Shown piece after piece: positions 3,916-44,299 of a DNA stretch of 64,000 nt. This stretch comes from Telluria mixta. GTDB taxonomy: Bacteria > Pseudomonadota > Gammaproteobacteria > Burkholderiales > Burkholderiaceae_D. Position 1 is the stretch's first letter. Every line of letters begins with the position of its first letter. Where the stretch lies: contig NZ_CP119520.1 of NCBI RefSeq assembly GCF_029223865.1, forward strand, positions 1,364,001-1,428,000. Reading direction: 5' to 3'. The notes beneath the pieces were generated by a model. The model was not told the origin of the DNA. It saw nothing but the letters and a program-made list of their open reading frames with translations, and did no database searches. The position numbers and the translations under genes are program-made.

Positions 3916-4713
3916 ATGCTGAAACCCTCCGCACCCGCCATGCCTGGCGTGACGGACACGCTGGAATTCGTCAAGAACCTGTGGGGATCCATGCAGATCC
4001 CCGGCACCGGCATGCCCGGCATGCCGGGGATGGCAGGCATCGCCGCACCGCCGATGTCGACCGAGGACCTGGACAAGCGTATCGCCGACCTCAAGGCGGT
4101 CGAGTCCTGGCTCAACCTGAACCTCAGCATGCTGCGCGGGACCATCCAGGCCCTCGAAGTGCAGCGCGGCACGCTGATGACGCTGAAGACGATGGGCGCC
4201 TCGATGGCCGAAGCGATGCGCCAGTCCGGCGTCAGCGCGGAAAAGATGGCGTCCATGCCGTTCTCGCCCTTCTTCGGTGCGCAGGGCCAGGGAGGCGCCG
4301 CTGCCAAGCCGGCACCCGCTGCCCCTGCCGCAAAGACGGAGACACCCAAGGCCCCGACTGCCGCCGCGGCGGGCAGCGGTGGCACGGCTCAGCCGGGCAC
4401 GACCGCGCCGCAATCCACCGGTGCAGCGGACGCGCAAGCCAACCCGGCCGCGATGGCGATGCCGGCCGCCGTCGCGTGGTGGAACATGTTGCAGGAACAA
4501 TTTACGCAAGCTGTCGCGAATGCGATGACGCCGAGCGCCGCAGCACCGGCAGTGCCCGGAAACGAGGGCGGCGGCGCACCGAAGGCGGAGCCGTCCAGGG
4601 CGGCATCGAAAACCGCCATGGCGCCCCCCGTCGAAGGCAGCGGCGGCCCGGCGGCCGGCAACGGCAACGGCAAGACACCTCGCACCAGCCGGACGAAGAC
4701 CGACAAGCCCTGA
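3916..4713 (+). CDS. phaM: PhaM-family polyhydroxyalkanoate granule protein
   Basis: A 265-residue protein with the PhaM layout. The N-terminal region begins with a segment containing VTDTLEFVKNLWGSM, followed by a Met/Gly/Pro stretch (GMPGMPGMAG). A helical segment PPMSTEDLDKRIADLKAVES follows, with a leucine-rich helix running to SMLRGTIQALEVQRGTL. The Ala/Pro-rich tail ends in a basic stretch (KTPRTSRTKTDKP). In Ralstonia eutropha PhaM activates PHB synthase PhaC1 and tethers granules to the nucleoid, the basic tail binding DNA; the same role is inferred here. GGGAG precedes the ATG. No other PHA gene is in the window. Confidence 0.8.
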   Translation: MLKPSAPAMPGVTDTLEFVKNLWGSMQIPGTGMPGMPGMAGIAAPPMSTEDLDKRIADLKAVESWLNLNLSMLRGTIQALEVQRGTLMTLKTMGASMAEAMRQSGVSAEKMASMPFSPFFGAQGQGGAAAKPAPAAPAAKTETPKAPTAAAAGSGGTAQPGTTAPQSTGAADAQANPAAMAMPAAVAWWNMLQEQFTQAVANAMTPSAAAPAVPGNEGGGAPKAEPSRAASKTAMAPPVEGSGGPAAGNGNGKTPRTSRTKTDKP

Positions 4714-4729
4714 CGCTACGCCCGCAACG

Positions 4730-6862
4730 TCATCCCAGGTCGAACGGCAACTTGCGCAAGCGCTTGCCCGTGAGCTGGAAGATGGCGTTGGCGAAGGCCG
4801 GCGCCAGCGGCGGCAGGCCCGGCTCGCCCATGCCGGTCGGCGGGTCGGCGGACGGCACGATGAACACGCCCACGTGCGGCATGTCCGGCATGCGCGCCAC
4901 CGTGTAGTCGCTGAAATTCCGCTGCTCGACGACGCCGTCCTTGAACGTGATCGCGGCGCCCGGCAACGTGGTGCCGAGGGCCGCCAGCACGGCGCCCTGC
5001 ACCTGCGCCTCGATCGTCAACGGATTGACGGCCAGGTTGCAATGCACCCCGGCCGTGACCTTGTGCAGCCTGGGCACGTCCTTCTCGACCGACGCCTCGA
5101 CCACGTAGGCCACCACGCTCCCGGACATGCCGTGCACGGCCACGCCCCAGGCACGGCCCTCGCCCAGGGGCTTCTTGCCGTAGCCGGACTTCTGCACCGC
5201 CAGGTCGAGCGCCGCCAGGTGGCGCGGGCGTTTATCACCCAGCAGCTTGCGGCGGTACTCGACCGGGTCGGCGCCTGCCGCATGCGCGACCTCATCGACC
5301 AGCGTCTCCATGACGAACGCCGTGTGGTTCGACGCCGATCCGCGCCACCACAGCACCGGCACGTTCGCCTTCGGATGATGCACCGACAGCTTCACCGGCA
5401 AGGCATACGCGTCAAGGATGCCCTCGGTCGTCGTGGAGTCCACGCCGTTCTTGATCAGCACCGATTCGAACGGCGTGCCCGCACTGATGGCCTGGCCGAC
5501 GATCACGTGGTTCCACGCCACGACGTCGCCTTTGCCATCGAGCCCGATGTCGACCTTGTGCACGTGCGCCGGGCGATAGTAGCCGCCCTTGATGTCGTCC
5601 TCGCGGCTCCAGATGACTTTCACCGGACCGCGTCCGTACGCCCTGGCGACGTTGACCGCTTCGACCAGGTCGTCCGACGTGGTCACGCCGCGGCGGCCGA
5701 AACCGCCGCCCGACATCATGGTGTGCAAGGTGACCTGCGTGAGCTTGAGCCCCGCCGCCGCCGCGACGGCGGTCTGGTCGAACGTCTGGAACTGCACGCC
5801 CGCCCAGACCGAGCAGCGATCTGCATGGAGGTCGACCACGCAGTTGATCGGTTCCATCGGCGCGTGTGCCAGATAAGGAAATTCGTAGACGGCCGAGATC
5901 GACGTCGTCGCCAACGCCGGCGTGGCGGCGCGCGTCCGGTAATCGCGCAGCTGGCGTTCCGAATCGACCTTGTCGACGGCGCCCGTGTCCCAGTCGATGA
6001 CGAGCGCGTCGCGGCCCTGACTCGCCGGCCAGTAACCGTCCGCGATCACGGCCACGCCGCGCCCGCCGCTGCCCACCGCCACCTCGACCACGTCGACGAC
6101 GCCCTTGATCGCGCGGGCCTTGCCTGCATCGAGGCTGCGCACCCTGCCCCCGAACACGGGCGGACGCGCGACCACGGCCACCTTCATGCCGGGCAGCGTG
6201 AAGTCGATGCCGAACTGCTGCTTGCCGCTCGACTTGGCGCGCGCATCCAGGCGTCCGGTCGGCTTGCCGATGTGGCGAAAATCCTTCGCGTCCTTCAGTT
6301 TGACGGTCGCAGGCACCGGTTGCTTCATGGCCGCATCGGCCAGCGCGCCGTAGCGCGCCTTGCGGCCGCCGGGGCCGATGACGACGCCCGCGGCCGTGGT
6401 GCACGCGTCGGGCGCGACCTGCCACCGCTCAGCCGCGGCGGCGACCAGCATCGCGCGGGCGCGTGCGCCGATCTCGCGGTAATGCGTAAACGAGTGCGCC
6501 ACCGAGATGGAGCTGCCGGTCATCTGGATGCCGAACAGCGGGTCCTTGTAGGCGTCGCCGGCCGGCGCCAGCTCGGCGCGCACGCGCGACCAGTCGGCAT
6601 CGAGCTCCTCGGCGACCAGCATCGGCAGCGCCGTGTGCACGCCCTGGCCGAATTCGAGCCGGTCGACCAGCACGGTGACGGTGTCGTCGGGCGCGATGTG
6701 CAGGAACGCATTGGGTGAGGCGGGCGCCGGCGTGGCCGCGCGGCCCTGGACGGGGATGACGAAGCCGAGTACGAGCCCGCCGGTGGATTTCAGAAAGCCG
6801 CGGCGGGTCAATGCCACCTGGTTGCTTCGTTCGATGCGCACGCCGCTCTCCGCTGTGATCAA
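4730..6862 (-). CDS. Tat-exported molybdopterin-binding subunit (IorB-like, xanthine dehydrogenase family)
   Basis: A 710-residue large subunit of the isoquinoline 1-oxidoreductase beta / aldehyde dehydrogenase type. A twin-arginine signal is clear (ALTRRGFLKSTGG, residues 17-29, then a hydrophobic stretch and an Ala-rich cleavage region). Family motifs include DRLEFGQGVHTALPMLVAEE, MMSGGGFGRRGVTTSDDLVE and the C-terminal GMGEPGLPPLAPAFANAIF, where the Glu matches the usual active-site Glu. It would act in the periplasm, oxidising an aldehyde or N-heterocycle with a Mo cofactor. The usual small [2Fe-2S] partner (IorA) and a cytochrome are not adjacent: one flank is convergent phaM, the other a response-regulator gene. 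The substrate is unknown. Confidence 0.85.
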   Translation of the reverse strand: MITAESGVRIERSNQVALTRRGFLKSTGGLVLGFVIPVQGRAATPAPASPNAFLHIAPDDTVTVLVDRLEFGQGVHTALPMLVAEELDADWSRVRAELAPAGDAYKDPLFGIQMTGSSISVAHSFTHYREIGARARAMLVAAAAERWQVAPDACTTAAGVVIGPGGRKARYGALADAAMKQPVPATVKLKDAKDFRHIGKPTGRLDARAKSSGKQQFGIDFTLPGMKVAVVARPPVFGGRVRSLDAGKARAIKGVVDVVEVAVGSGGRGVAVIADGYWPASQGRDALVIDWDTGAVDKVDSERQLRDYRTRAATPALATTSISAVYEFPYLAHAPMEPINCVVDLHADRCSVWAGVQFQTFDQTAVAAAAGLKLTQVTLHTMMSGGGFGRRGVTTSDDLVEAVNVARAYGRGPVKVIWSREDDIKGGYYRPAHVHKVDIGLDGKGDVVAWNHVIVGQAISAGTPFESVLIKNGVDSTTTEGILDAYALPVKLSVHHPKANVPVLWWRGSASNHTAFVMETLVDEVAHAAGADPVEYRRKLLGDKRPRHLAALDLAVQKSGYGKKPLGEGRAWGVAVHGMSGSVVAYVVEASVEKDVPRLHKVTAGVHCNLAVNPLTIEAQVQGAVLAALGTTLPGAAITFKDGVVEQRNFSDYTVARMPDMPHVGVFIVPSADPPTGMGEPGLPPLAPAFANAIFQLTGKRLRKLPFDLG

Positions 6863-6927
6863 AGCGGAATTCTTACACGGCGGACGGCGCCGCCGGCGTT
6901 ATGATTTTCACCAGATCGTGTAGCGAA

Positions 6928-8601
6928 TTACGCCACTTCGGCGATCGTCCCGCTTTCGAGTACAGGCTGCAGCTGCGCCAGTTGCTCCATCAGTTGCGCG
7001 AAGCGTTGCTGCCCCGGCAGCAGCCGGTCCACGTGGTGCAGCACCTCGTACGCCTCGGCCGACAGGGCGCCGTCGTAGCCATGCTGCTGCAGGTGCGAGA
7101 CGAGGATCTGGGCCGCGTTGAACAGGATACGCTGGTTGTTCGGCACCTTCTTGCGCGCCTGGCGCATCCACTCGACCGCGTCCATCAGCTTGCCCGTCTT
7201 CCACAGCAACACGCCCTGGTTCATCAGGTCGGTCGCTTCCTTCTTCGAGACGCGAATGAACTCCAGGCCCTCGTCGCCGAGGCGCGCCTTGTCGAAGATC
7301 TTCTGCACTTCGTCGAGCAGCAGCGGGTTGTCGTGGTTGTTGCGGATCACGTAGCACAGCAGCTCCACGGGCGCATCCTTCACGCCCACCGCGAACAGCA
7401 GGGTCGCCAGTTCCAGGCAGGTCGGGATGTCGGGCCGGTCCTCCGTCGCATTGAGAAGGGCTTCCAGCTCGTCGCCGGCCTTGCGCGCGCGCCGGTAGTC
7501 GCCGCTCTCGTGGTAGACGAGGCCCTCGGTGATCTTGGAACGCAGGGCGATGTCCGGATAGTCGGCGGCGAACTCGCGCTGCACCTGCAGCAGCAGCCGC
7601 AGCGCTTCCTTCGCATCGTTTTTCTGGCCGCACACGCGCGCGAGCCCGAGGTAGGCGTCCGGCGTCTTCATGACGGAATACTCGCCGATCAGGATGCACT
7701 TGCGGAAGGCCTGCTCCGCCAACTGCACATTGCCCACCTTGAGCGCCACGTTGCCCAGGTTGCGCTGGCGCGGCACGGAATTCGGCGACAGTTTTGCGGC
7801 CCGTTCGAGGATCGCGCACGCCTCGTCCAGCTTGCCCAGGTTCTGATAGGTCAACGCGAGCTGGTCGTACGCGTCGATGTAATAGCGGTTCTCCGCGATC
7901 ACGCTCTGGAAGGATTGTCTCGCCTGTTCGAATTCGCCGTTGGCCATGCGGATCTTGGCGATGCCGGCGCGCGCCCACTGGTATTCGCGCTGCTCCAGCA
8001 CGCGCTCGTACACCTCGCGCGCCTTGACCGGCTCGCCGCTCTTTTCCATCAGCTTGGCCTTCATGCGCAGGAGGTCGATCTCGTGCGCCTTGTGCCCTTC
8101 GATGGCGGCATCGCACAGGCGCGCCGCGCGCAGGTAGTCCTTCTCCGCATAGGCCTGGTCGATGAGGCGGAAGATCTGCTTCTTGTGCCATACGCGATTG
8201 AGCCGCGTGAGCAGCACGCCTTCCGTGATCGGCTTGATCAGGTAGGCATCCGGCTGGTGCTCGGCCGCGCCCATCACGGATTCCACGCTCTTTTCTGCCG
8301 ACACCATCAGCCACACGGTGCTCGGGTTGACGAGGTTGCGCACGCGCGCTTCTTCCAGCACCTGCTGGCCGTTCTTGCCGTCGCCCAGGTTGTAGTCGCA
8401 CAGGACGACGTCGTAGCGGATGCGCGTGAGCAGGCCCATCGCCTCGCCGCCGGACGATGCCTGGTCGATGTTCTTCGCGCCCAGGCTGCGCAAGGCTTCG
8501 CGCAGCAGCTGGCGCACGCCGACGAAATCGTCGACGACGAGGTAGTTCTTGTCGGCCCAGTCGATCTCGCCCACGGCCTTGAGGGAAGCAGGCGCGTTCA
8601 T
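6928..8601 (-). CDS. Response regulator with C-terminal TPR repeats
   Basis: A 557-residue protein starting at MNAPASLKAVGEIDW (8601). Residues 18-140 form a CheY-like receiver: acidic pair D24/D25, phospho-acceptor D69 in CDYN, and the conserved Lys in LIKPIT near 121. Residues about 150-540 are tetratricopeptide repeats, for example AKLMEKSGEPVKAREVYERV and ARAGIAKIRMANGEFEQARQ. There is no DNA-binding or enzymatic output, so signalling must be by protein contact. The start overlaps the stop of the upstream histidine kinase by ATGA, so the two are translationally coupled cognate partners. Longer in-frame upstream starts are rejected because they would run through the kinase gene. Confidence 0.9.
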   Translation of the reverse strand: MNAPASLKAVGEIDWADKNYLVVDDFVGVRQLLREALRSLGAKNIDQASSGGEAMGLLTRIRYDVVLCDYNLGDGKNGQQVLEEARVRNLVNPSTVWLMVSAEKSVESVMGAAEHQPDAYLIKPITEGVLLTRLNRVWHKKQIFRLIDQAYAEKDYLRAARLCDAAIEGHKAHEIDLLRMKAKLMEKSGEPVKAREVYERVLEQREYQWARAGIAKIRMANGEFEQARQSFQSVIAENRYYIDAYDQLALTYQNLGKLDEACAILERAAKLSPNSVPRQRNLGNVALKVGNVQLAEQAFRKCILIGEYSVMKTPDAYLGLARVCGQKNDAKEALRLLLQVQREFAADYPDIALRSKITEGLVYHESGDYRRARKAGDELEALLNATEDRPDIPTCLELATLLFAVGVKDAPVELLCYVIRNNHDNPLLLDEVQKIFDKARLGDEGLEFIRVSKKEATDLMNQGVLLWKTGKLMDAVEWMRQARKKVPNNQRILFNAAQILVSHLQQHGYDGALSAEAYEVLHHVDRLLPGQQRFAQLMEQLAQLQPVLESGTIAEVA

Positions 8602-11044: not shown

Positions 11045-11608
11045 TCATCTCCGGCGGCGGCACAGGCAGGCACGGTCGTGGTCGTCGACCATGCCGATGC
11101 CCTGCATGTAGGCATACACGATGGTCGAGCCGACGAACTTGAAGCCCCGCTTGGCCAGGTCTTTCGAGATGCGGTCGGACAGCCCGGTGCTCGCCGGCCG
11201 CGCGCCGTCCGGCCAGTCGTTGACGATGGGCTTGCCGTCCACGAAGGCCCACAGGTAGTCGTCCAGGGTCAAACCCTGTTCGCGCAGGCGCAGGTAGGCT
11301 TGCGCATTGTTGATGGCGGCCGCGACCTTCAGGCGGTTGCGCACGATGCCGGGATTCGCCAGCAGTGCCGCGACTTTCGCATCGTCGTAGCTGGCGATCT
11401 TGTCCGCGTCCCAGCCGTCGAAGGCGATGCGGTAGTTGTCGCGTTTGTTCAGGATCGTTTCCCACGACAGCCCGGCCTGCGCGCCTTCGAGATTGAGCAT
11501 TTCGAACAGCGTCGTCTCGTCGTGGCAGGGTACGCCCCACTCGTGGTCGTGATAAGCGATGTAGCGTGGGTTGGCCATGTTGGCCCAGGTGCAGCGGGTG
11601 TCGTTCAT
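11045..11608 (-). CDS. tag: DNA-3-methyladenine glycosylase I
   Basis: A 187-residue base-excision repair enzyme that removes 3-methyladenine from DNA. It matches E. coli Tag in length and motifs: RCTWANMANPRYIAYHDHEWG at the N-terminus (zinc ligands C6 and H20), the active-site segment LNLEGAQAGLSWETILNKR, an HhH-like middle region, and a C-terminal DDHDRACLC supplying the remaining His and Cys zinc ligands. It is first of a two-gene operon with mnmC, whose start lies 4 bases beyond its stop. It is divergent from the Ser/Thr kinase gene at 11679. Confidence 0.95.
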   Translation of the reverse strand: MNDTRCTWANMANPRYIAYHDHEWGVPCHDETTLFEMLNLEGAQAGLSWETILNKRDNYRIAFDGWDADKIASYDDAKVAALLANPGIVRNRLKVAAAINNAQAYLRLREQGLTLDDYLWAFVDGKPIVNDWPDGARPASTGLSDRISKDLAKRGFKFVGSTIVYAYMQGIGMVDDHDRACLCRRRR

Positions 11609-11678
11609 ACATCAAGTATAACCCCCTGCGGCGCCGATTTTCATTGTTGGCAAACCGATTTGCTTTACACTTGCCGCC

Positions 11679-12677
<999 letters not shown>

Positions 12678-13915: not shown

Positions 13916-14740
13916 ATGAGCCCCTGGAAGCAGCTAACCCCGAGCATCTACCACCGCCTCGCCTTCGGCTGCGCGTACGGACTGACCGACGTCGGCCTCG
14001 TGCGCCAGTCCAACGAAGACAACTTCCTCATCGATCCCGCGCTTCGCCTGGTGGCCGTCGCCGACGGCATGGGCGGTCATGACGGCGGCGAAATCGCGGC
14101 GCGCCTGGCCCTGGAAACCGTGCGCGACGCCCTGGGCGCCGTCGACCCGAAAAAATCGTCTCCCGGCGATGCGGCCGACCCGGACGCGACCTGGCAGGAC
14201 GAACACATGCCCGCCGTCGTGGCCGTGCATGAAGCCGTCGACGCCGCCAATGCGCGCGTGTACGGCGCCAACGTGCACAACGGGCTTGGGGAAGGCAGCG
14301 GCATGGGCACCACGCTGACGGGCTTCTGGCAAAGCCTGCCGGACGGCCCGCTCGTCGTCTTCCACGTCGGCGACAGCCGCCTGTACCGCTACCGCGACGG
14401 CGAACTGGCCGTGCTCACGCGCGACCAGACCATGTACCAGCAGGCGCTGGAAGCGGGCGTCTCCGGCGACTTCCCGCCGCGGAACCTGCTGCTGCAGGCG
14501 ATCGGCCCGACGGCCGCGATCGCCCCCGACGTCAAGGCGTGCACACCCCATCCCGGCGATCTGTACCTGCTGTGCAGCGACGGCTTGTACGGCAACACGC
14601 CGCACGCCGCGATCGAACGCGTGCTGGCCGGCGCGCATGCGCAAACGCTGGAGCACTGCTGCGCCGACCTGATCGCCCTCGCCAAGACGCACGGCAGCCG
14701 TGACAACATCACGGCCGTACTGGCGCTCGTCGAACGCTGA
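13916..14740 (+). CDS. PP2C-family serine/threonine protein phosphatase
   Basis: A 274-residue metal-dependent phosphatase with all PP2C signatures: VRQSNEDNF near residue 30, VADGMGGHDGGEIAA near 50, GMGTTLTGF, VGDSRLYRYRDGELAVLTRD, YLLCSDGLYGN and SRDNITAVLALVE at the C-terminus. The conserved Asp residues bind two metal ions. It would reverse phosphorylation by the kinase at 11679, with which it forms a cluster. It resembles the stand-alone PppA/Stp1 type and has no membrane segment. It starts at MSPWKQLTPSIYH; a Shine-Dalgarno sequence is not obvious. Confidence 0.93.
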   Translation: MSPWKQLTPSIYHRLAFGCAYGLTDVGLVRQSNEDNFLIDPALRLVAVADGMGGHDGGEIAARLALETVRDALGAVDPKKSSPGDAADPDATWQDEHMPAVVAVHEAVDAANARVYGANVHNGLGEGSGMGTTLTGFWQSLPDGPLVVFHVGDSRLYRYRDGELAVLTRDQTMYQQALEAGVSGDFPPRNLLLQAIGPTAAIAPDVKACTPHPGDLYLLCSDGLYGNTPHAAIERVLAGAHAQTLEHCCADLIALAKTHGSRDNITAVLALVER

Positions 14741-31460: not shown

Positions 31461-31549
31461 TATACTCGTGCGATAAGGGGTGTTCGCGCCATGTCGGCGC
31501 GGCAGGTGATAGCGCTGGTCGGGCCGCCACGCGGTCTTGTTACGACCCC
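31461..31549 (+). promoter_or_regulatory. Promoter and structured leader of the antiporter-symporter operon
   Basis: TATACT (31461-31466) is a plausible -10, which would start the RNA near 31473 with AUAAGGGG. The leader holds GGGG (31477-31480), a strong hairpin CGCGCC-ATGTC-GGCGCG (31484-31500) and CCCC (31546-31549), which touches the AUG and can pair with the GGGG. No Shine-Dalgarno sequence precedes the start, so folding could control initiation. It has a loose resemblance to the opening AAGGGG of yybP-ykoY elements but does not match their full consensus by eye. Confidence 0.4.
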
Positions 31550-32846: not shown

Positions 32847-34322
32847 ATGAACGACCTGGTGAACGCCATCAACGGCATCGTGTGGAGCCCGGCCCTGATC
32901 GCCCTGTGCCTGGGCGCCGGCCTGTATTTTTCGGTGCGCTCGCGCTTCCTGCAGCTGCGCCATCTACGCGAGATGGTGCGCCTCATGATGGAAGGGAAAA
33001 GCTCGGCCGAAGGCGTGTCGTCGTTCCAGGCGCTGGCCATGACGCTGGCCGGCCGCGTCGGCACCGGCAACATCGCGGGCGTCGCCACGGCCATCACGTT
33101 CGGCGGTCCGGGTGCCGTATTCTGGATGTGGGCCGTGGCCTTCCTGGGCGCCAGCTCGGCGTTCGTCGAGTCCACGCTCGGCCAGGTCTACAAGGAGCAG
33201 ATCCACCGCGAGTTCCGCGGCGGCCCCGCGTTCTACATCGAGAAGGGCCTGGGCATGAAGTGGTATGCCTGGATCTTCGCCGTCGTCACCATCTTCGCCA
33301 CCGGCGTGCTGCTGCCGGGCGTGCAGGCGAATTCGATCGCGGAAGGCCTGCGCAACGCCACCGGCATCGACGCCAACGTCACCGCCGCGCTGCTCGCCAT
33401 CGCGCTCGGCTTCATCATCTTCGGCGGCGTCAAGCGCATCGCCCACTTCGCCGAAATCGTCGTGCCGTTCATGGCCCTCGCGTACATCATCGTCGCCTGC
33501 GTCATCATCTTCCTGAACTGGCAGGCGCTGCCGGGCGTGCTCACGTTGATCTTCAGCTCGGCCTTCGGCCTGGACGCCGGCTTCGGCGCCATCGTCGGCA
33601 TGGCGATCCAATGGGGCGTCAAGCGCGGCGTGTATTCGAACGAAGCGGGCCAGGGCACCGGACCGCACGCGTCGTCCGCCGCGGAAGTCAGCCATCCGGC
33701 CAAGCAGGGCCTCGTGCAAGGCTTCTCGGTCTACATCGACACGCTGTTCGTGTGCTCGGCGACGGCCTTCATGCTGCTGATCACCGGCCAGTACAACGTC
33801 GAAGGGCCGGACGGCACCGCGATCCACACGGGCGTCCACGGCGTCGCCTCGGGCCCGGGCTACGTGCAGACCGCGCTGGAAAACGTCATGCCGGGCTTCG
33901 GCTCGCTGTTCGTCGCGCTCGCCCTGCTGTTCTTCGCCTTCACGACGATCGTTGCCTATTACTACATCGCCGAAACCAACATCGCCTATATCAACCGCAC
34001 GGTGCACCGTCCGTGGATGACGCTCGTGCTCAAGGTCTGCATGATCGGCGCGACCGTGTACGGCTCGGTGAAGACGGCCGACGTGGCCTGGGCGCTGGGC
34101 GACCTGGGCGTCGGCCTGATGGCCTGGCTGAACATCGCCGCGATCCTGCTGCTGCGTAACGTCGCCTTCAAATGCCTGCGCGACTACGAAGCGCAGCGCG
34201 CGGCCGGCAAGGAGCCCGAGTTCGATCCCGCCGCGCTGGGCATCGAGCGTGCCGATTACTGGGTCAAACGGGCCGCCGGCCGGCGCCAGCAAGACGCCGA
34301 CGCGGTCACGGCCGAGGTGTGA
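32847..34322 (+). CDS. Alanine/glycine:cation symporter family protein
   Basis: A 491-residue AGCS-family transporter that imports alanine or glycine with Na+. The family motif reads GVSSFQALAMTLAGRVGTGN, followed by IAGVATAITFGGPGAVFWMW and SSAFVESTLGQVYK. A second conserved block is RGVYSNEAGQGTGPHASSAA. About 11 membrane helices are evident. GGAGACGCAAGCA precedes the ATG. It is the second gene of an operon with the Na+/H+ antiporter. The C-terminal 40 residues are hydrophilic and cytosolic. Confidence 0.93.
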   Translation: MNDLVNAINGIVWSPALIALCLGAGLYFSVRSRFLQLRHLREMVRLMMEGKSSAEGVSSFQALAMTLAGRVGTGNIAGVATAITFGGPGAVFWMWAVAFLGASSAFVESTLGQVYKEQIHREFRGGPAFYIEKGLGMKWYAWIFAVVTIFATGVLLPGVQANSIAEGLRNATGIDANVTAALLAIALGFIIFGGVKRIAHFAEIVVPFMALAYIIVACVIIFLNWQALPGVLTLIFSSAFGLDAGFGAIVGMAIQWGVKRGVYSNEAGQGTGPHASSAAEVSHPAKQGLVQGFSVYIDTLFVCSATAFMLLITGQYNVEGPDGTAIHTGVHGVASGPGYVQTALENVMPGFGSLFVALALLFFAFTTIVAYYYIAETNIAYINRTVHRPWMTLVLKVCMIGATVYGSVKTADVAWALGDLGVGLMAWLNIAAILLLRNVAFKCLRDYEAQRAAGKEPEFDPAALGIERADYWVKRAAGRRQQDADAVTAEV

Positions 34323-39906: not shown

Positions 39907-40017
39907 AAAGGCCTCGTTGAAAGTGTGCTGTCTTTGCCCGGCGGTGCGAGGCTCTTTCGTTCTCTGTCGATGAGCGTTATTTCAAGAGCCGAGGTTCAAG
40001 CGGACAACCTGGACGAA

Positions 40018-40117
40018 GTCCGTTTCTGGCCGGGCCTGCCTGTCATCAGCATAGCAGTTTGCAAAAGTGAACACGCACAAGGGCGTAACAGATAGCGGTA
40101 GCCGATCCAAGGCGGAC
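40018..40117 (+). repeat. Array repeat R1 (long form)
   Basis: Begins GTCCGTTTCTGGCC and ends CCGATCCAAGGCGGAC, so the ends pair. An internal insert containing CAGCATAGCAG makes it about 100 bp. It closes the array after its last gene. Confidence 0.65.
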
Positions 40118-40134
40118 CTTGGGCAGCAATGCTG

Positions 40135-40422
40135 TTAGCGGCTGGGCTTACCGAACACGCGCGTATGCCAGTACATCTGTGGTGCGGCAAACCAGCCTTC
40201 GTTCCTGGTCGTTCGGAACTGAGCAAGTTGAGCCATCGGTATTTGATAGCGGCTGAACAAAGCTAACAGGTCTCTGAGGGACGGCTGCGACAGGTTCGTT
40301 CTCACCACCAAGGTATCTTGTTCCCACCGAAGAACGCCAGGAATCTCCAGCGCCCATTCAAACAGATGCTTCTCGTCTAGCTGCGACCCAAAATGCACGC
40401 CTGAACAGTCGAGATAAATCAT
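40135..40422 (-). CDS. Array gene 9: small hypothetical protein (95 aa)
   Basis: A 95-residue soluble protein started at MIYLDCSGVHFGSQLDEKHL; longer readings add an Arg-rich leader that crosses repeat R2 and are rejected. It is mixed alpha/beta with FEWALEIPGVLRWEQDTLVV, a helix SQPSLRDLLALFSRYQIPMA, and an aromatic C-terminal tail. The compact acidic N-terminal half resembles small immunity proteins in general make-up, but there is no family match I can name. It is bounded by repeats R1 (3') and R2 (5'). The UAA stop sits 18 bases before R1. Confidence 0.6.
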   Translation of the reverse strand: MIYLDCSGVHFGSQLDEKHLFEWALEIPGVLRWEQDTLVVRTNLSQPSLRDLLALFSRYQIPMAQLAQFRTTRNEGWFAAPQMYWHTRVFGKPSR

Positions 40423-40440
40423 TGGTTTCCTTGCTCTTCT

Positions 40441-40503
40441 ACGTCTTCTCCTAGCCCGTTGCTGCCGCTCAGTGTATGACTGCTGTCGACCCAATACACA
40501 CGT
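40441..40503 (+). repeat. Array repeat R2
   Basis: A degenerate short copy (ACGTCTTCTCCTAGCCCGTT through GTCGACCCAATACACACG). It aligns along its length with R9, including the central GCTGCCGCTCAGTGTATGAC. Confidence 0.55.
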
Positions 40504-40554
40504 TGGCTGCCGTCCCAAGTAAGCTCTAACGAACGTGGCTTGGTCACACAATTC

Positions 40555-40839
40555 CTACTGAAGTTCGGCGTACAAACGCCGCAGTATCGCGTCGCCTGCA
40601 TCTGAATTCGCGAGCAGATAACTACCGCTCCAGTTATCCCAACCGGCGGAAATCTCAAGCTCGGCACGTAAGAACGACGGGCATACTCCTTCATCGAGTC
40701 CGGCGACGATGCCGCCATGTCTAGCAAACCCGAGTTCGTTTTCGAGTTTAGCGCATGCCTGCTGGTATGCCACGGAATCGTAATCGCCGAAATCGAGATT
40801 CAGGTGCCCGTTAGCGGCAATGTGCAAGGATGGGTTCAT
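40555..40839 (-). CDS. Array gene 8: small hypothetical protein (94 aa)
   Basis: A 94-residue soluble protein started at MNPSLHIAANGHLNLDFGDY; a GTG 45 bp upstream is an alternative start. It has an N-terminal beta hairpin, a helix DSVAYQQACAKLENELGF and a C-terminal sheet/helix with WDNWSGSYLLANSDAGDAIL. No family is recognised. It lies between repeats R2 and R3, about 50 bases from each side. Confidence 0.55.
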   Translation of the reverse strand: MNPSLHIAANGHLNLDFGDYDSVAYQQACAKLENELGFARHGGIVAGLDEGVCPSFLRAELEISAGWDNWSGSYLLANSDAGDAILRRLYAELQ

Positions 40840-40884
40840 AGCGATGCGGTTATGGCTGAGTTCACAAACTGATCCATGCTCCAC

Positions 40885-40950
40885 GTAGGTCCGCTGTTGG
40901 CCGAATGCGGGCCTACAACGACGTCCGCTTCCGACCCATTGCAGACGTTC
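40885..40950 (+). repeat. Array repeat R3
   Basis: A short-form copy starting GTAGGTCCGCTGTTGGCCGA and ending CCGACCCATTGCAGACGTTC. The GTCCGCT motif occurs twice (near 40889 and 40923). Confidence 0.7.
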
Positions 40951-40953
40951 GAG

Positions 40954-41298
40954 CTATGACTTCAACGTCTTAGCGATCCGGCGCGTCAGGTATCCGGCGA
41001 AAAATGCTATCGCTCCAAGTCCAAACGCCATTGTTAGTACGACTGGCACGAGAACAATTGCCGATAAGCGTTCAGACGCTGTCCCTACAACTAAACCTAA
41101 GCCAGTCCAGCAACACAAGGCCAGCGTCAAGCCTGCAAAGAATCGGGTTGCGTCTGCTTGGAAGCATCCTGCAACGAAAGCGATAAGGACTGAAAAAAAG
41201 GCGGCCGGCAGCCCAAAGCCAGACGTTGCAGCCATAACAACTGCGTAGATTCCAAACGCGGCCGCGCCAGCTATAAGCGACCAACTTTGAATTTTCAT
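40954..41298 (-). CDS. Array gene 7: small membrane protein (114 aa)
   Basis: A 114-residue, very hydrophobic protein with four likely membrane helices: SLIAGAAAFGIYAVVMAATS, GLPAAFFSVLIAFVAGCFQA, FFAGLTLALCCWTGLGLVVG, and VLVPVVLTMAFGLGAIAFFA, then a basic tail RRIAKTLKS. No transport motif is seen. Repeat R3 starts 4 bases after its stop and R4 lies about 48 bp before its start, so the gene fills its cassette. Confidence 0.6.
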   Translation of the reverse strand: MKIQSWSLIAGAAAFGIYAVVMAATSGFGLPAAFFSVLIAFVAGCFQADATRFFAGLTLALCCWTGLGLVVGTASERLSAIVLVPVVLTMAFGLGAIAFFAGYLTRRIAKTLKS

Positions 41299-41345
41299 TT
41301 TTATGCGCAGAGTAGGTCTATCAACAATGTTTAAACGGTCGGCCC

Positions 41346-41410
41346 ATGTCCGCTCTTGGCCGAACTCGGCCGTTCATTGTACGGCAGTAGCCGACCCGTA
41401 GGGGACGGTC
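41346..41410 (+). repeat. Array repeat R4
   Basis: The clearest short copy. ATGTCCGCTCTTGGCCGA opens it, GGCCGA-AC-TCGGCC (41358-41371) is a perfect internal hairpin, GCCG and CGGC flank TTCATTGTA, and CCGACCCGTAGGGGAC closes it so that GTCC pairs with GGAC. Confidence 0.75.
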
Positions 41411-41427
41411 GTGACGAGGGCTGATAG

Positions 41428-41829
41428 TTAGATGCGTGCGTTCTGTAAGCGAGCAAACAACTCACCTAACGTCAGTTTTTCAGTCCAAATTTCGCCGAGC
41501 GCGATTCCGTGTTTAGCTTTGAGGTCATCGGTCAATGTCTCAATTTCCAACGCGTCCGCGACCCAACGGTTGGGGTACAAGTCGCGATAGATTTCCCAGA
41601 TCCGATCGTCAGGGCTGAACTTTAATTTCTCACTGTCCCGAAAGGCAAAAGCGGCAACGAAGAGCAAGAGGAACTCTCTTATGTCCTCCTTAGTAGCTTG
41701 TGGAAATGCTCTACGCCACTGTGCACCCTGGCACTTTCGAAATTGATATCCCTTGGGAATGCTAGTTCCGAACCTTAGCCAGAGTATCGACAGCAGAATC
41801 AAAAGACCCACTACCGCAAGCATGCTCAT
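41428..41829 (-). CDS. Array gene 6: small protein with one membrane helix (133 aa)
   Basis: A 133-residue protein started at MSMLAVVGLLILLSILWLRF, with GGTGAG upstream. The N-terminal helix (2-20) is the only membrane span. The soluble part has RKCQGAQWRRAFPQATKEDI and an acidic helical C-terminus (VADALEIETLTDDLKAKHGI) that recalls DUF1493/acyl-carrier-like folds, without a Ser phosphopantetheine site. Function unknown. It lies between repeats R4 and R5. Confidence 0.58.
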   Translation of the reverse strand: MSMLAVVGLLILLSILWLRFGTSIPKGYQFRKCQGAQWRRAFPQATKEDIREFLLLFVAAFAFRDSEKLKFSPDDRIWEIYRDLYPNRWVADALEIETLTDDLKAKHGIALGEIWTEKLTLGELFARLQNARI

Positions 41830-41865
41830 TTCGCTCACCACCTTATTGTTTTCGCTACACCGCCA

Positions 41866-41890
41866 ACGACCGCTCCTGGCCGATAGAAGA
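41866..41890 (+). repeat. Array repeat R5 (left half)
   Basis: CGACCGCTCCTGGCCGATAG matches the left half of the repeat; the right half is missing or too diverged to recognise. It keeps the one-repeat-per-gene order. Confidence 0.5.
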
Positions 41891-41922
41891 AGTCTCACAG
41901 CTATCGCAAAACCATGGTCAAA

Positions 41923-42264
41923 TTATAAAAGAGAGAAAGTAATCCATAGATACCAGAGGAACGGCGCAATCAAAATCACATAGACACTGCGTCGGACAAC
42001 TTTGGAAGCAGGAGCTTGTGTTCCAGTATTACGCCTTTCCAGATGAGCCGACCACAGAGCGCTAGAACCACTCACGAGCAACGCAAGTACATAGGTCACA
42101 AAAAGCACACCAATCATCAGGAATGCATCTGACCCTCCCATTTGCCCTTTATGCTCCTTCGCATAGGCAATGACAGAAAAGATCCACGCGATGCCCAGCA
42201 GTAGCGGCACAATGCCGACGACCATGAGAGCGTTCGCGATGCGTAGTTGGCTTTGTAGTGTCAT
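41923..42264 (-). CDS. Array gene 5: small membrane protein (113 aa)
   Basis: A 113-residue protein with three membrane helices: ANALMVVGIVPLLLGIAWIF, AFLMIGVLFVTYVLALLVSG, and a C-terminal SVYVILIAPFLWYLWITFSL. A polar loop KEHKGQMGGSD and a basic loop HLERRNTGTQ lie between them. No family is recognised. It lies between repeats R5 and R6. Confidence 0.58.
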   Translation of the reverse strand: MTLQSQLRIANALMVVGIVPLLLGIAWIFSVIAYAKEHKGQMGGSDAFLMIGVLFVTYVLALLVSGSSALWSAHLERRNTGTQAPASKVVRRSVYVILIAPFLWYLWITFSLL

Positions 42265-42344
42265 ATCAACAGTCTACGGCATCCGAGACAGTAAAAATGC
42301 ACGGATGGTCACAAGCTATTTTTCGCTGAACAAAATCACCGCAA

Positions 42345-42404
42345 GTCTGCTCTTTCCCCTTCGCGGCCGCTTCGTGTAAGGCAGATTCCGACCCATAGCG
42401 GACG
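42345..42404 (+). repeat. Array repeat R6
   Basis: A short copy: GTCTGCTCTTTCCCC opens it and CCGACCCATAGCGGAC closes it; GTCTGCT and AGCGGAC pair over 7 bp with one G-T. Confidence 0.65.
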
Positions 42405-42417
42405 TAGCTAAAGCTGG

Positions 42418-42681
42418 CTAAGCGAACTCGGCCGCCATTCGAAGCGCGCTAAAAGCGATGTACTCGTTCGTGTATTCGGGGCCTTCCGCCTCTGGTCCCG
42501 CAAGCCAACAGTCAAACTCGTCGTCGCATCTTTCGACAGCTTCCTTCAATGAGCGCCTCTCGTCTTGCGAGCAGTTGTCGATGAGGCATTCCCGTGCCCG
42601 GTCATCAGCGATTCCGTATTTTTCAGCGAGAGCAATCAGGTGATGTAGTTGAAGCGGAACGTTTGAAGGTCGAAGGTTCAT
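42418..42681 (-). CDS. Array gene 4: small acidic helical protein (87 aa)
   Basis: An 87-residue soluble protein, mostly helical and acidic: LQLHHLIALAEKYGIADDRA, NCSQDERRSLKEAVERCDDE, then a short loop PEAEGPEYTNEY and a final helix. Nothing in it marks an enzyme; it resembles small immunity or antitoxin-like proteins in size and charge only. It lies between repeats R6 (13 bp after the stop) and R7 (30 bp before the start). Confidence 0.58.
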   Translation of the reverse strand: MNLRPSNVPLQLHHLIALAEKYGIADDRARECLIDNCSQDERRSLKEAVERCDDEFDCWLAGPEAEGPEYTNEYIAFSALRMAAEFA

Positions 42682-42710
42682 GACGGTACCTAGATATGGC
42701 AGCGATTCGA

Positions 42711-42814
42711 ACGACCGCTATTGGCCGATCTAGGCCGTTGGACCCAGCATACCAGCTTGCTTGGTTGCAAAGTTCACGGACTGTTACGACAGGCAGCAGC
42801 TACATGGAGTGGAC
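42711..42814 (+). repeat. Array repeat R7 (long form)
   Basis: Left half ACGACCGCTATTGGCCGATC, an insert with CAGCATACCAGCTTGC that is shared with R1, and a diverged right half GGCAGCAGCTACATGGAGTG ending in GGAC. About 104 bp in all. Confidence 0.55.
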
Positions 42815-42840
42815 TTCGTAGTCCAAGTTAAATACAACGT

Positions 42841-43331
42841 TCAAAGACCCAAAGGGCAGTCTCGCCAAAATTTTCTTGAGCCGGCAGTTTCACCCGCACC
42901 TCCACACTCATGAATTGGGTGGAAACCCTTGTCGTCTCCGGTTGCGCTGCCGTTTCGATGCGGTGTGAAGGTCACAGTGTTACCGTCAGAGATCAAGGAA
43001 ACTAGTGACGTCTGCTTCTGAAATGTCGCTTCGCTTTTGACGACCGTAGCCGCCAATCTCGAGGCAGCTAATTCCTTCCAATTTAGAGGATGGGCGACGC
43101 CATTATGCGATCTCTCCAGTGCTTGACTGATAGCCCTACTTAGTTCCACAGCTGATATTGGCGCATGTAACACGATGTAGGGCTCAACCGTAATCCCGAT
43201 ACCAGACGTTGTCGTGCTGACCGGACAGACTATGTACCGCGATGGGAGCCTGTAGATAGACGCTTTTCTGACCGGGATAGTGGCCCCGAAAACGGAAAGT
43301 ATGGGCTGACGAGACGGCTAACCAGTTTCAT
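42841..43331 (-). pseudogene. Array gene 3: hypothetical protein, probably frameshifted
   Basis: The frame from about 43280 to 42841 reads as a good protein (VRKASIYRLPSRYIVCPVST, EPYIVLHAPISAVELSRAIS, LVSLISDGNTVTFTPHRNG). It has no ATG between the upstream stop near 43313 and a weak internal GTG at 43173. An ATG at 43331 opens the neighbouring frame with a fitting start MKLVSRLVSPYFPFSG. The two join if one G is added to the G4 run (C4 on the plus strand) at 43284-43287, giving about 163 residues. No family is recognised. It lies between repeats R7 and R8. Confidence 0.5.
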
Positions 43332-43357
43332 GATAAGGCTCGCAACAGGATAAGTGG

Positions 43358-43410
43358 ACGATCGCTTTTGGCCAGTTGCAGACTGTCGGGACAGCATAGC
43401 ACCTTGCTAC
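43358..43410 (+). repeat. Array repeat R8 (long form, degenerate)
   Basis: ACGATCGCTTTTGGCCAGTT matches the left half; GGGACAGCATAGCACCTTGC matches the insert seen in R1 and R7. The right end cannot be placed with confidence. Confidence 0.5.
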
Positions 43411-43481
43411 ATCGAAAAATCTCGTGAAGTGTCACGAACGTCTGCAACCACCTCGAAGCAAACCTTCGCCTTCGTCCAATC

Positions 43482-43814
43482 TCAACAGCCATGTCGACGT
43501 GCGAAAACAAGGAACTCTACTTGCTCTGGATCTGAAAGCCACCTAGCTGTAATCTCTGCACCTGGGTCTTCAGCGTTAATTAAGTCTGCCTCGGGTTGCC
43601 ATGTTTTATCGTCGGGATTTCCAAAGCCAACCGTACATCCTGACTTGATAAGCGAACCTGAAACTCGCCCGATCGCCAAGGGAAGCTCATCCTTTGCGTA
43701 TGTCGGCCCACCGAAGCTACTTGTAGTGATATGGCAAAGGAACACAAGGTCGCGCTCCGCTTCGCAAATCAACGACCTGATCCATTCTTGCTCAAGCTGG
43801 TCTGTATAAGTCAT
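43482..43814 (-). CDS. Array gene 2: small hypothetical protein (110 aa)
   Basis: A 110-residue soluble acidic protein starting MTYTDQLEQEWIRSLICEAE. It has an N-terminal helix, a beta strand RDLVFLCHITTSSFGGPTYA, and a C-terminal ITARWLSDPEQVEFLVFARR. The balance of hydrophobic strands and acidic helices suggests a folded cytosolic protein. No family is recognised. It lies between repeats R8 and R9. Confidence 0.58.
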   Translation of the reverse strand: MTYTDQLEQEWIRSLICEAERDLVFLCHITTSSFGGPTYAKDELPLAIGRVSGSLIKSGCTVGFGNPDDKTWQPEADLINAEDPGAEITARWLSDPEQVEFLVFARRHGC

Positions 43815-43860
43815 AAATGGCGTTCGCCAATGACATCTTCGAGAAATTCACATCAGGGCA

Positions 43861-43922
43861 ATGTCTACTCCTGGCCGGCTGTTGCCGTCCAGTGTACGAC
43901 AGAGACCGACCCGAAGCGGACA
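43861..43922 (+). repeat. Array repeat R9
   Basis: A full short copy: ATGTCTACTCCTGGCCGG at the left, CCGACCCGAAGCGGACAC at the right, with CGTCCAGTGTACGAC in the centre. Confidence 0.72.
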
Positions 43923-43929
43923 CAGGAGT

Positions 43930-44184
43930 TTAGTGATCGTATTTCGCCAAGAAGTCGTTAATCTCTTGGTCTGCAGCTGCCCAGTTGGGACCACGCGCCT
44001 CATACATGCTGACAAGACCAAGCAGCTCTATCAAGTTTTCGGCCTGAAAGCGCAAGCCGTCTTTCTCGGCGTACCAACCGTCGTTTCCGGGTGCGGTTAC
44101 GGTGTAAGTCTTTTGGGTAAGAACGAGGTAGGCCGGGACTTCCACATTCGCAGCCGCGCAGAGGAAAGTTTGGACTTGATCCAT
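43930..44184 (-). CDS. Array gene 1: small hypothetical protein (84 aa)
   Basis: An 84-residue soluble protein starting MDQVQTFLCAAANVEVPAYL. A strand-rich centre (KTYTVTAPGNDGWYAEKDGL) leads to a helix AENLIELLGLVSMYEARGP and an acidic tail. It resembles small SMI1/immunity-like or DUF proteins in size only; no assignment is made. It is the first cassette in gene orientation, between repeats R9 and R10. Confidence 0.58.
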   Translation of the reverse strand: MDQVQTFLCAAANVEVPAYLVLTQKTYTVTAPGNDGWYAEKDGLRFQAENLIELLGLVSMYEARGPNWAAADQEINDFLAKYDH

Positions 44185-44231
44185 ACAAATACTCCAATGA
44201 GTCCGAGGTCGGGTTGTCCTGAGGGTCGCCT

Positions 44232-44264
44232 ACGTCTGCTTCTGGCCGATTGCGGCCCTTGGCA
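44232..44264 (+). repeat. Array repeat R10 (left half)
   Basis: ACGTCTGCTTCTGGCCGATT matches the left half; the rest (GCGGCCCTTGGCACG) is partial. It marks the array edge, 36 bp from the tagF stop. Confidence 0.55.
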
Positions 44265-44299
44265 CGCACCATCTAAGACGTATTTTGCTTCGATCCGCA

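What the first reader, a model, noticed from the sequence alone, without database searches (positions are those of the whole stretch)
40018..44270. Cassette-like array: nine orphan small genes alternating with ten copies of one palindromic repeat
Ten repeats in the same orientation separate nine short minus-strand genes, exactly one gene per interval, with 370-650 bp spacing. Repeats come as a short form (about 62 bp; R2, R3, R4, R6, R9), a long form with a shared insert (about 100 bp; R1, R7, R8) and left-half remnants (R5, R10). The short form opens with GTCCGCT plus TGGCCGA and closes with CCGACCCA plus AGCGGAC, with inner hairpins, so a single strand would fold as a branched structure as attC sites do. 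The GC content is lower than in the flanks and no gene has a recognisable family. This is what an integron cassette array, or a new repeat-driven gene-capture system, would look like. No integrase is present.
Basis: partly seen in the sequence, partly recalled or inferred. Interest (0 to 1): 0.85.

Follow-up and report, generated by a model that had tools for sequence, protein, structure and literature searches.

The report
Integron-like gene cassettes without integrons
Beside a secretion-system cluster in a Massilia-group bacterium lies a row of nine small unknown genes separated by copies of one palindromic repeat; comparison with related bacteria suggests that such gene-and-repeat units move singly between arrays, chromosomes and plasmids, as integron cassettes do, but with sites that are not those of integrons.

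Summary
In detail: ten co-oriented copies of one palindromic repeat (40.01-44.28 kb) alternate with nine small minus-strand genes of no known family, in a low-GC island beside a T6SS cluster. Models find 35 places in this genome (E up to 1); 28 lie in seven spots. In 58 stretches fetched around such repeats, 118 of 118 neighbouring repeats are co-oriented and 73 of 79 intervals of 250-900 bp have their longest ORF on the expected strand. In the closest relative by TagF, 4.06 kb is replaced by 0.44 kb with one unrelated gene; its right edge lies inside repeat R10, its left edge 60 bp outside R1. Near-identical cassettes sit in different arrays, once on chromosome and plasmid of one strain; block ends cluster in the repeat arms (17 of 52, shifted control mean 1.3). 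The repeats are not attC: both core boxes in 0 of 183; no integron integrase over cut-off. Other families share the arms around other middles. Best reading: a cassette system that works like an integron but is not one. Enzyme unknown; a small tyrosine recombinase inside two arrays is a candidate with mixed support. Some cassettes are immunity-like, as in rAID arrays.

The parts
40013..40124 (+). R1, long-form repeat (strand of the model; genes are on minus)
   Evidence: R2 model 80 bits; also present in the closest relative, L062 15200-15311
40135..40422 (-). gene 1, 95 aa, no family
40438..40506 (+). R2, short-form repeat
   Evidence: 67 bits
40555..40839 (-). gene 2, 94 aa; relatives in other arrays: L103 85%, L075 80%
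40884..40951 (+). R3, short-form repeat
   Evidence: 66.5 bits
40954..41298 (-). gene 3, 114 aa, hydrophobic by eye, no family
41343..41411 (+). R4, short-form repeat (best short copy)
   Evidence: 78 bits
41428..41841 (-). gene 4, about 137 aa (start codon uncertain), no family
41863..41910 (+). R5, half repeat (RA arm plus part of the middle)
   Evidence: family D1; weak
41923..42264 (-). gene 5, 113 aa, hydrophobic by eye, no family
42340..42408 (+). R6, short-form repeat
   Evidence: 66.4 bits
42418..42681 (-). gene 6, 87 aa, no family
42708..42821 (+). R7, long-form repeat
   Evidence: 43.4 bits
42841..43173 (-). gene 7, 110 aa (GTG start), no family
43355..43470 (+). R8, long-form repeat, diverged
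   Evidence: 31.9 bits
43482..43814 (-). gene 8, 110 aa, no family
43858..43926 (+). R9, short-form repeat
   Evidence: 68.4 bits
43930..44184 (-). gene 9, 84 aa; relatives beside such repeats in other genera (G208 83% id)
44229..44284 (+). R10, half repeat at the gene-strand 5' edge; homology to the G069 locus resumes inside it, at 44245

Best explanation
A mobile gene-cassette array that works like an integron array but is not built from attC sites and has no integrase beside it in this genome. SHOWN: each full repeat has two conserved arms in inverted orientation, LA (gene strand GTCCGCTTTGGGTCG) and RA (CGGCCAGAAGCGGAC), around a variable middle (short, long, or about 330-400 bp in one plasmid); genes mostly sit one per interval and co-oriented; units of RA-gene-LA, with or without one middle, occur at 97-99.8% identity in unrelated surroundings, with ends at the inner edges of the arms. 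INFERRED: the repeat extrudes as a hairpin or cruciform, and an enzyme acting in trans exchanges strands at the two matching levels of the stem, X (middle|RA) and X' (LA|middle), so that genes are excised, exchanged and carried by plasmids. I think most likely a tyrosine recombinase acting on the folded strand; a 208-216-aa one lying inside two arrays is the first candidate. INFERRED: the cargo is a stock of accessory genes, partly immunity genes against toxins of neighbours, which would fit the place beside a T6SS cluster.
For: Layout: 118/118 neighbouring repeats co-oriented; longest ORF on the expected strand in 100/115 intervals, 73/79 for 250-900 bp; array GC 0.53 against 0.66. Gain/loss here: G069 keeps both flanks at 92-93% but has 0.44 kb with one unrelated ORF in place of 4.06 kb, right edge inside R10. 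Patchy cargo: gene 2 in 3 of 294, gene 9 in 18 of 294 family genomes, own included; 6 of 18 gene 9 loci of other genomes, the six best, show the repeat within the roughly 3 kb held. Same cassettes with other neighbours. Recent blocks: chromosome/plasmid pair L077/L128 99.8%, L078/L133 99%, L132/L178 98.9%, L129/L178 97% (L128 lies in M. forsythiae plasmid unnamed2). 17 of 52 block ends (13 blocks, each counted in both loci) within 8 nt of X or X'; shifted control mean 1.3, maximum 6 in 2000. Covariation score above all 500 shuffles and all slid controls. IS1182-family elements (NF033551), of a family reported to target stem-loops (PMC5678879, passages), are inserted in these repeats: in 7 of 8 copies the left flank is an arm. 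Arms shared by other families with other middles. Candidate recombinase inside arrays of G020 and G063 and in a Paraburkholderia megapolitana plasmid row with arm pairs.
Against: The candidate recombinase was not found in this genome: TIGR02249 at E up to 0.001 found only an XerD-like, an XerC-like and a 395-aa protein there. Its tie to the sites is uncertain: arms within 300 nt after its gene in 4 of the first 8 plasmid loci but 1 of 6 fetched afterwards as a test; together 5 of 14 against a shuffled-arm mean of 0.87. Five of 13 recent blocks end away from repeats, L106/L177 ends 19-45 nt off; L072/L107 and L078/L129 have one end in a repeat; the left edge against G069 is 60 bp outside R1. 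Neither upstream middles (9 comparable of 20 pairs, 5 with different forms) nor downstream middles (7 comparable) of shared genes are more alike than background, although an integron-type unit should carry its downstream site. Conserved arms pull alignment ends inward, which the shifted control does not remove. Folding is only mildly better than shuffles (median z -0.85 to -1.71). In distant families the genes lie on the other strand relative to LA-RA.
Confidence: 0.6

Rival explanations
1. The array is a CALIN, an integron cassette array without integrase, with very diverged attC sites.
For: Co-oriented small genes with a palindromic site each, variable middles, cassette exchange.
Against: RYYYAAC and GTTRRRY together in the end windows of 0 of 183 repeats on either strand (singly 4-6, shuffled expectation about 2.5); no integron integrase over cut-off in this genome; exchange 15-19 nt inside the site.
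Confidence: 0.07
2. Units are elements with terminal inverted repeats (RA and LA) moved in trans by a DDE transposase that recognises stem-loops, for instance of the IS1182 kind found inside the repeats.
For: Blocks RA-gene-LA of 300 and 532 bp at 99-99.8% end at the inner edges of the arms; IS1182-family elements insert at nearly the same level of the arm; IS1272 of that family is reported to replace stem-loops (PMC5678879, passages).
Against: No duplication of the middle around cassettes (adjacent long middles 0.687 identical, non-adjacent 0.692); arrays strictly co-oriented; two recent blocks carry a whole middle. Termini of the IS look unlike the arms by eye.
Confidence: 0.2
3. Repeats are ordinary extragenic palindromes or terminators in variable regions; genes are shuffled by homologous or illegitimate recombination.
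For: Repeat bodies of one form are on average 64-66% alike between loci; 5 of 13 recent blocks end elsewhere; the TagF flank varies in nine further relatives without a detected repeat.
Against: Blocks of 300-532 bp in unrelated surroundings with identical, partly non-consensus arms at both ends; copies clustered, not dispersed; 118/118 co-orientation.
Confidence: 0.12

Closest known systems
Integron cassette arrays and CALINs (attC sites)
   Same: Co-oriented small genes, a palindromic site with variable middle per gene, transfer of single units between chromosome and plasmid.
   Different: No RYYYAAC/GTTRRRY, no IntI found, exchange inside the stem at two symmetric positions, 15-nt arms conserved across families.
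rAID systems of Bacteroidales (PMC12247911, passages read)
   Same: Arrays of co-oriented short low-GC genes with conserved intergenic motifs; SUKH-type immunity genes among the cargo.
   Different: rAID is defined by a tyrosine recombinase at the array; none was found at the window's array. Cargo here is only partly immunity-like. The rAID motif itself was not compared.
IS1182-family stem-loop-replacing insertion sequences (IS1272; PMC5678879, passages and outline)
   Same: Use the same palindromic stem; insertion point within a few bases of cassette boundaries.
   Different: Cassettes carry no transposase and have other termini.
pdif modules of Acinetobacter (features recalled; PMC7399989 seen only in the listing)
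   Same: Genes between recombination sites used by a recombinase in trans.
   Different: Site length, sequence and the strict co-orientation differ (recalled, not tested).

Membership tests
Integron / CALIN | attC with RYYYAAC inverse core and GTTRRRY core (PMC3053210, passages) | tested here: not met
   both boxes in 0 of 183 repeats on either strand, searched in 24-nt windows at the ends
Integron / CALIN | integron integrase in the genome | tested here: not met
   TIGR02249: 5 matches, none over cut-off; a CALIN does not need one in cis
Integron / CALIN | palindromic site with each co-oriented gene, able to fold as a hairpin | tested here: met
Integron / CALIN | mobile unit = gene plus its complete downstream site | tested here: inconclusive
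   L132/L178 fits; L129/L178 carries the upstream middle, L077/L128 and L078/L133 neither; downstream middles not above background in 7 pairs
Integron / CALIN | attI site | not tested
   no search made
rAID | tyrosine recombinase at the array | tested here: not met
   for the window: no TIGR02249 match near it; elsewhere 4 loci with hits among 7486 ORFs, two of them inside arrays
rAID | array of co-oriented short low-GC genes with intergenic motifs | tested here: met
   GC is low against the genome, not below 41% as used for rAID
rAID | orphan immunity genes | tested here: inconclusive
   of 103 array ORFs 4 match SMI1_KNR4 and 1 Imm33-like; none of the nine window genes matched
TIR transposon / MITE | target duplication at each insertion | tested here: not met
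   no excess identity of adjacent middles; short target duplications not tested
REP/BIME | copies dispersed between unrelated genes over the genome | tested here: not met
   28 of 35 places in seven spots; a RAYT gene was not sought

The most novel reading that the evidence does not exclude
A second, integron-independent class of gene-cassette system in Proteobacteria: sites with widely conserved arms and lineage-specific middles, exchanged at either of two symmetric positions of a folded stem, perhaps by a small catalytic-domain-only tyrosine recombinase common on plasmids, feeding arrays of accessory and immunity genes on chromosomes and plasmids.
Probability: 0.45. Interest if true: 0.92.

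Novelty: new variant of a known kind. Interest (0 to 1): 0.8.

Why it matters
Integrons are the standard example of bacterial gene capture by cassettes. A parallel system with other sites would mean that tools which look for attC and IntI overlook a reservoir of small mobile genes, some of them immunity-like, in a large soil and water family. The arms give a direct handle (a model, exchange positions, and one candidate enzyme), so the question whether cassette arrays arose more than once becomes testable.

Tried and rejected
Rfam over the whole window at gathering scores: only an nhaA-I RNA elsewhere. TIGR02249 in the own genome: an XerD-like, an XerC-like and a 395-aa tyrosine recombinase, none over cut-off. 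A first phmmer run used wrong reading frames and found nothing; repeated, without the window's own ORFs. Duplication of the middle as a target-site duplication: no. Arm-like ends of the IS1182 elements turned out to be their target. Exact arm-pair pattern over 398 phylum genomes and over viral contigs: too strict to tell, since the own genome also gave 0; the single phylum hit looks like chance. Phage records: no match to the 115-bp repeat; plasmid records: 5. Structures of genes 9 and 2 from single sequences: mean pLDDT 58.7 and 53.8, not searched further. PDB by sequence for gene 9: none. Literature: no earlier description seen in the held open-licence PubMed Central library (searches; six literal pieces of the repeat gave 0 papers); most subscription papers are not in it. 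The candidate recombinase was tested on six further plasmid loci: 1 of 6 with an arm near; the models found one weak place just after and one just before the gene among these six.

Counts that leave things out: the pattern scan lists only first places. One search merges hits; alignment A3 holds the best 150 of 166 matches, nine lost ones and two half repeats of the window were added by hand; 3 of 118 pairs under 150 bp apart were dropped. The family search scored at most 12 candidates per genome. The Pfam set holds 94 of the 97 ORFs listed (L011:8578-8979, L080:6942-7115, L130:8686-8874 left out) plus the nine window genes, and its table shows 25 of 53 families. One search compares 20 pairs, most lacking a detected repeat on one side. 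One search keeps blocks of 90% identity or more, 150-1200 nt, near a repeat in both loci (13). Of 1279 plasmid records with a relative of the candidate recombinase, 14 were fetched.
Full report
What is there. The window is 1,364,001-1,428,000 of a 7.44 Mb one-contig genome. Its genus holds Massilia genomes: handle G036 has a contig of the same length as one of Massilia rhizosphaerae, and pieces of two G012 contigs are found in two plasmids of M. forsythiae GN2-R2. Between 40.01 and 44.28 kb lie ten copies of one palindromic repeat, all on the plus strand of the model, and nine small ORFs on the minus strand, one per interval. GC is 0.50-0.55 against 0.64-0.69 in the neighbouring kilobases. The next genes are TagF (TIGR03373) and TssM (TIGR03348) of a T6SS cluster. 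None of the nine proteins has a Pfam match with E below 0.06.

The repeat in this genome. Two models (short form, long form) give 35 distinct places at E up to 1. Of these 28 lie in seven spots: 1360-1363 (3), 1404-1408 (the window, 9), 4167 (1), 5213-5221 (9), 5267-5269 (2), 5828-5829 (3) and 6625 kb (1); the other seven are weak. Each spot is a dip in GC, the repeats of one spot share one orientation, and most ORFs lie antisense to the model strand; a 295-aa ORF at L009 12146-13033 is an exception.

The repeat in relatives. The long model hits 33 of 37 genomes of the genus, this one included, and 1 of 24 genomes of other families of the order, 79 of 294 sampled genomes of the family in 8 of 44 genera, and 5 of 368 other genomes of the class, weakly (E 2e-8 to 3e-5). 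In 58 stretches with 183 repeats, 118 of 118 neighbouring repeats are co-oriented, the longest ORF lies on the expected strand in 100 of 115 intervals (73 of 79 for 250-900 bp), and the median interval is 534 bp. The gene-strand consensus has two arms, GTCCGCTTTGGGTCG and CGGCCAGAAGCGGAC, round a long or short middle; information stops at the outer ends. The consensus short form folds into one long imperfect hairpin. On the long-form alignment the covariation score exceeds all 500 shuffles and all slid controls; that alignment was fitted to the structure, and folding energy of single copies is only mildly better than shuffles.

Gain and loss at this locus. G069, the closest by TagF among the 62 genomes searched (90%), keeps the left flank through R1 to position 40181 and the right flank from 44245; between them it has about 440 bp with one minus-strand ORF of 131 aa, without a Pfam match, instead of 4.06 kb. 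The right junction falls inside R10. The left one lies about 60 bp outside R1, in the tail of gene 1. Nine further relatives with TagF at 51-83% have other content at this flank, and the models found no repeat in the stretches fetched.

Transfer of single cassettes. Gene 2 has relatives in arrays of G065 and G007 (85 and 80%), gene 9 in G068 and G065 and in another genus, G208. In G065 relatives of genes 9 and 2 stand side by side, in the window they are seven places apart. The clearest cases are recent: a 532-bp unit at 99.8% on the 6.2-Mb contig and on the 23-kb plasmid of one strain, a 300-bp unit at 99% on two contigs of G026, and units shared by G026 and G063 at 98.9 and 97%. Their ends lie at the inner edge of an arm, and arms travel with the gene, including letters that depart from the consensus. 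Over the 13 blocks, 17 of 52 ends (each block counted in both loci) lie within 8 nt of such a position; shifting the blocks gives a mean of 1.3 and at most 6 in 2000. Against this, five of the 13 blocks end elsewhere, one is 19-45 nt off, and conserved arms draw alignment ends inward. The middle does not belong firmly to either neighbour: one recent block takes the downstream middle, one the upstream middle, two take neither; among older pairs neither upstream (9 comparable) nor downstream (7 comparable) middles exceed background.

Why not an integron. attC sites are defined by a palindrome between RYYYAAC and GTTRRRY (PMC3053210, passages). Both boxes together occur in 0 of 183 repeats on either strand. 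No integron integrase passes the cut-off in this genome. The exchange position is 15-19 nt inside the repeat. It works like an integron array; it fails the membership test.

A candidate enzyme. Two of the four loci with tyrosine-recombinase hits carry close relatives of one small protein, 208 and 216 aa, with only the catalytic domain (Phage_integrase, 71-72 bits): L074 14652-15278, next to a weak repeat at 14563-14630 (E 0.019), and L178 17010-17657, with an RA arm 66 nt after its stop. The family is common on plasmids: 1279 records at E up to 1e-10, the 40 listed at 64-75% identity. Of eight plasmid loci fetched first, four have an arm within 300 nt after the gene, and the P. megapolitana plasmid shows three arm pairs among small genes, the recombinase included; of six fetched afterwards as a test, one has. 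Together 5 of 14, shuffled arms 0.87 on average and at most 4 in 200. The protein was not found in the window's genome, where one search should have shown it at this score. I call it a candidate, and leave the odds as they were.

Insertion sequences. IS1182-family elements (471 bits to NF033551 for the L081 copy, cut-off 270) occur in eight copies in four genomes read, the own one included; in seven of eight the left flank is an arm of the repeat, and in at least two the whole middle is replaced. IS1272 of this family is reported to replace stem-loops (PMC5678879, outline and passages). I take this as support that the repeats extrude as hairpins, and as the base of the main rival.

Beyond the family. 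Genomes G519, G484 and G580 of other families of the class have the same arms round different middles in rows of 4-5 repeats, mostly with one to three genes per interval (one longer interval in G519 holds an insertion sequence), but with the genes on the other strand relative to the arms. Constant arms with lineage-specific middles are what a recombinase binding site would show.

Cargo. Of 103 array ORFs scanned, matches include GNAT acetyltransferases (5), SMI1_KNR4/SUKH (4), LprI (2) and Imm33-like (1); 53 Pfam families were matched in all, most by one ORF. A Janthinobacterium lividum plasmid array is annotated with a CDI immunity protein and a Tdi1-domain T6SS immunity protein. This resembles rAID arrays of Bacteroidales (PMC12247911, passages). 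That the window's nine genes are immunity genes is a guess from their place.

What remains open: the enzyme, the strand used, whether X and X' are used in one reaction, and why orientation differs between far families.

Noticed in passing
window 31478-31531 (+): nhaA-I RNA (49 bits, gathering 37), 1.3 kb before an amino acid carrier gene of the agcS family at 32847-34322.
   Followed up: partly
L187 (J. lividum plasmid NZ_CP049829.1), for example 4380-4736, 6588-6991, 8029-8429, 11339-11719, 11720-12044: A sequence of about 330-400 bp, repeated at 76-81% identity, forms an extra-long middle of these repeats.
   Followed up: partly
L187 5199-6051 and 8423-9264: A 0.85-kb array piece is duplicated at 97% within one plasmid array, carrying the same protein (WP_176386522.1) twice.
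   Followed up: partly
L185 (M. forsythiae plasmid unnamed2) 5006-5968 and 10433-11350: Two annotated tyrosine-type recombinases on the small plasmid that also carries repeats and the shared cassette.
   Followed up: no
L165-L168 (genome G363): Repeats that read by eye as two short hairpins in tandem with the same arms; perhaps a simpler form of the site.
   Followed up: no
L169, L171, L174: In three far families the genes lie on the strand opposite to that in Oxalobacteraceae relative to the LA-RA direction of the arms.
   Followed up: partly
L062-L071, 3' side of TagF; L066 13746-15932: The stretch beside TagF holds different genes in the relatives examined; in L066 a 728-aa ORF matches QatA of the Qat anti-phage system, below its cut-off.
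   Followed up: partly
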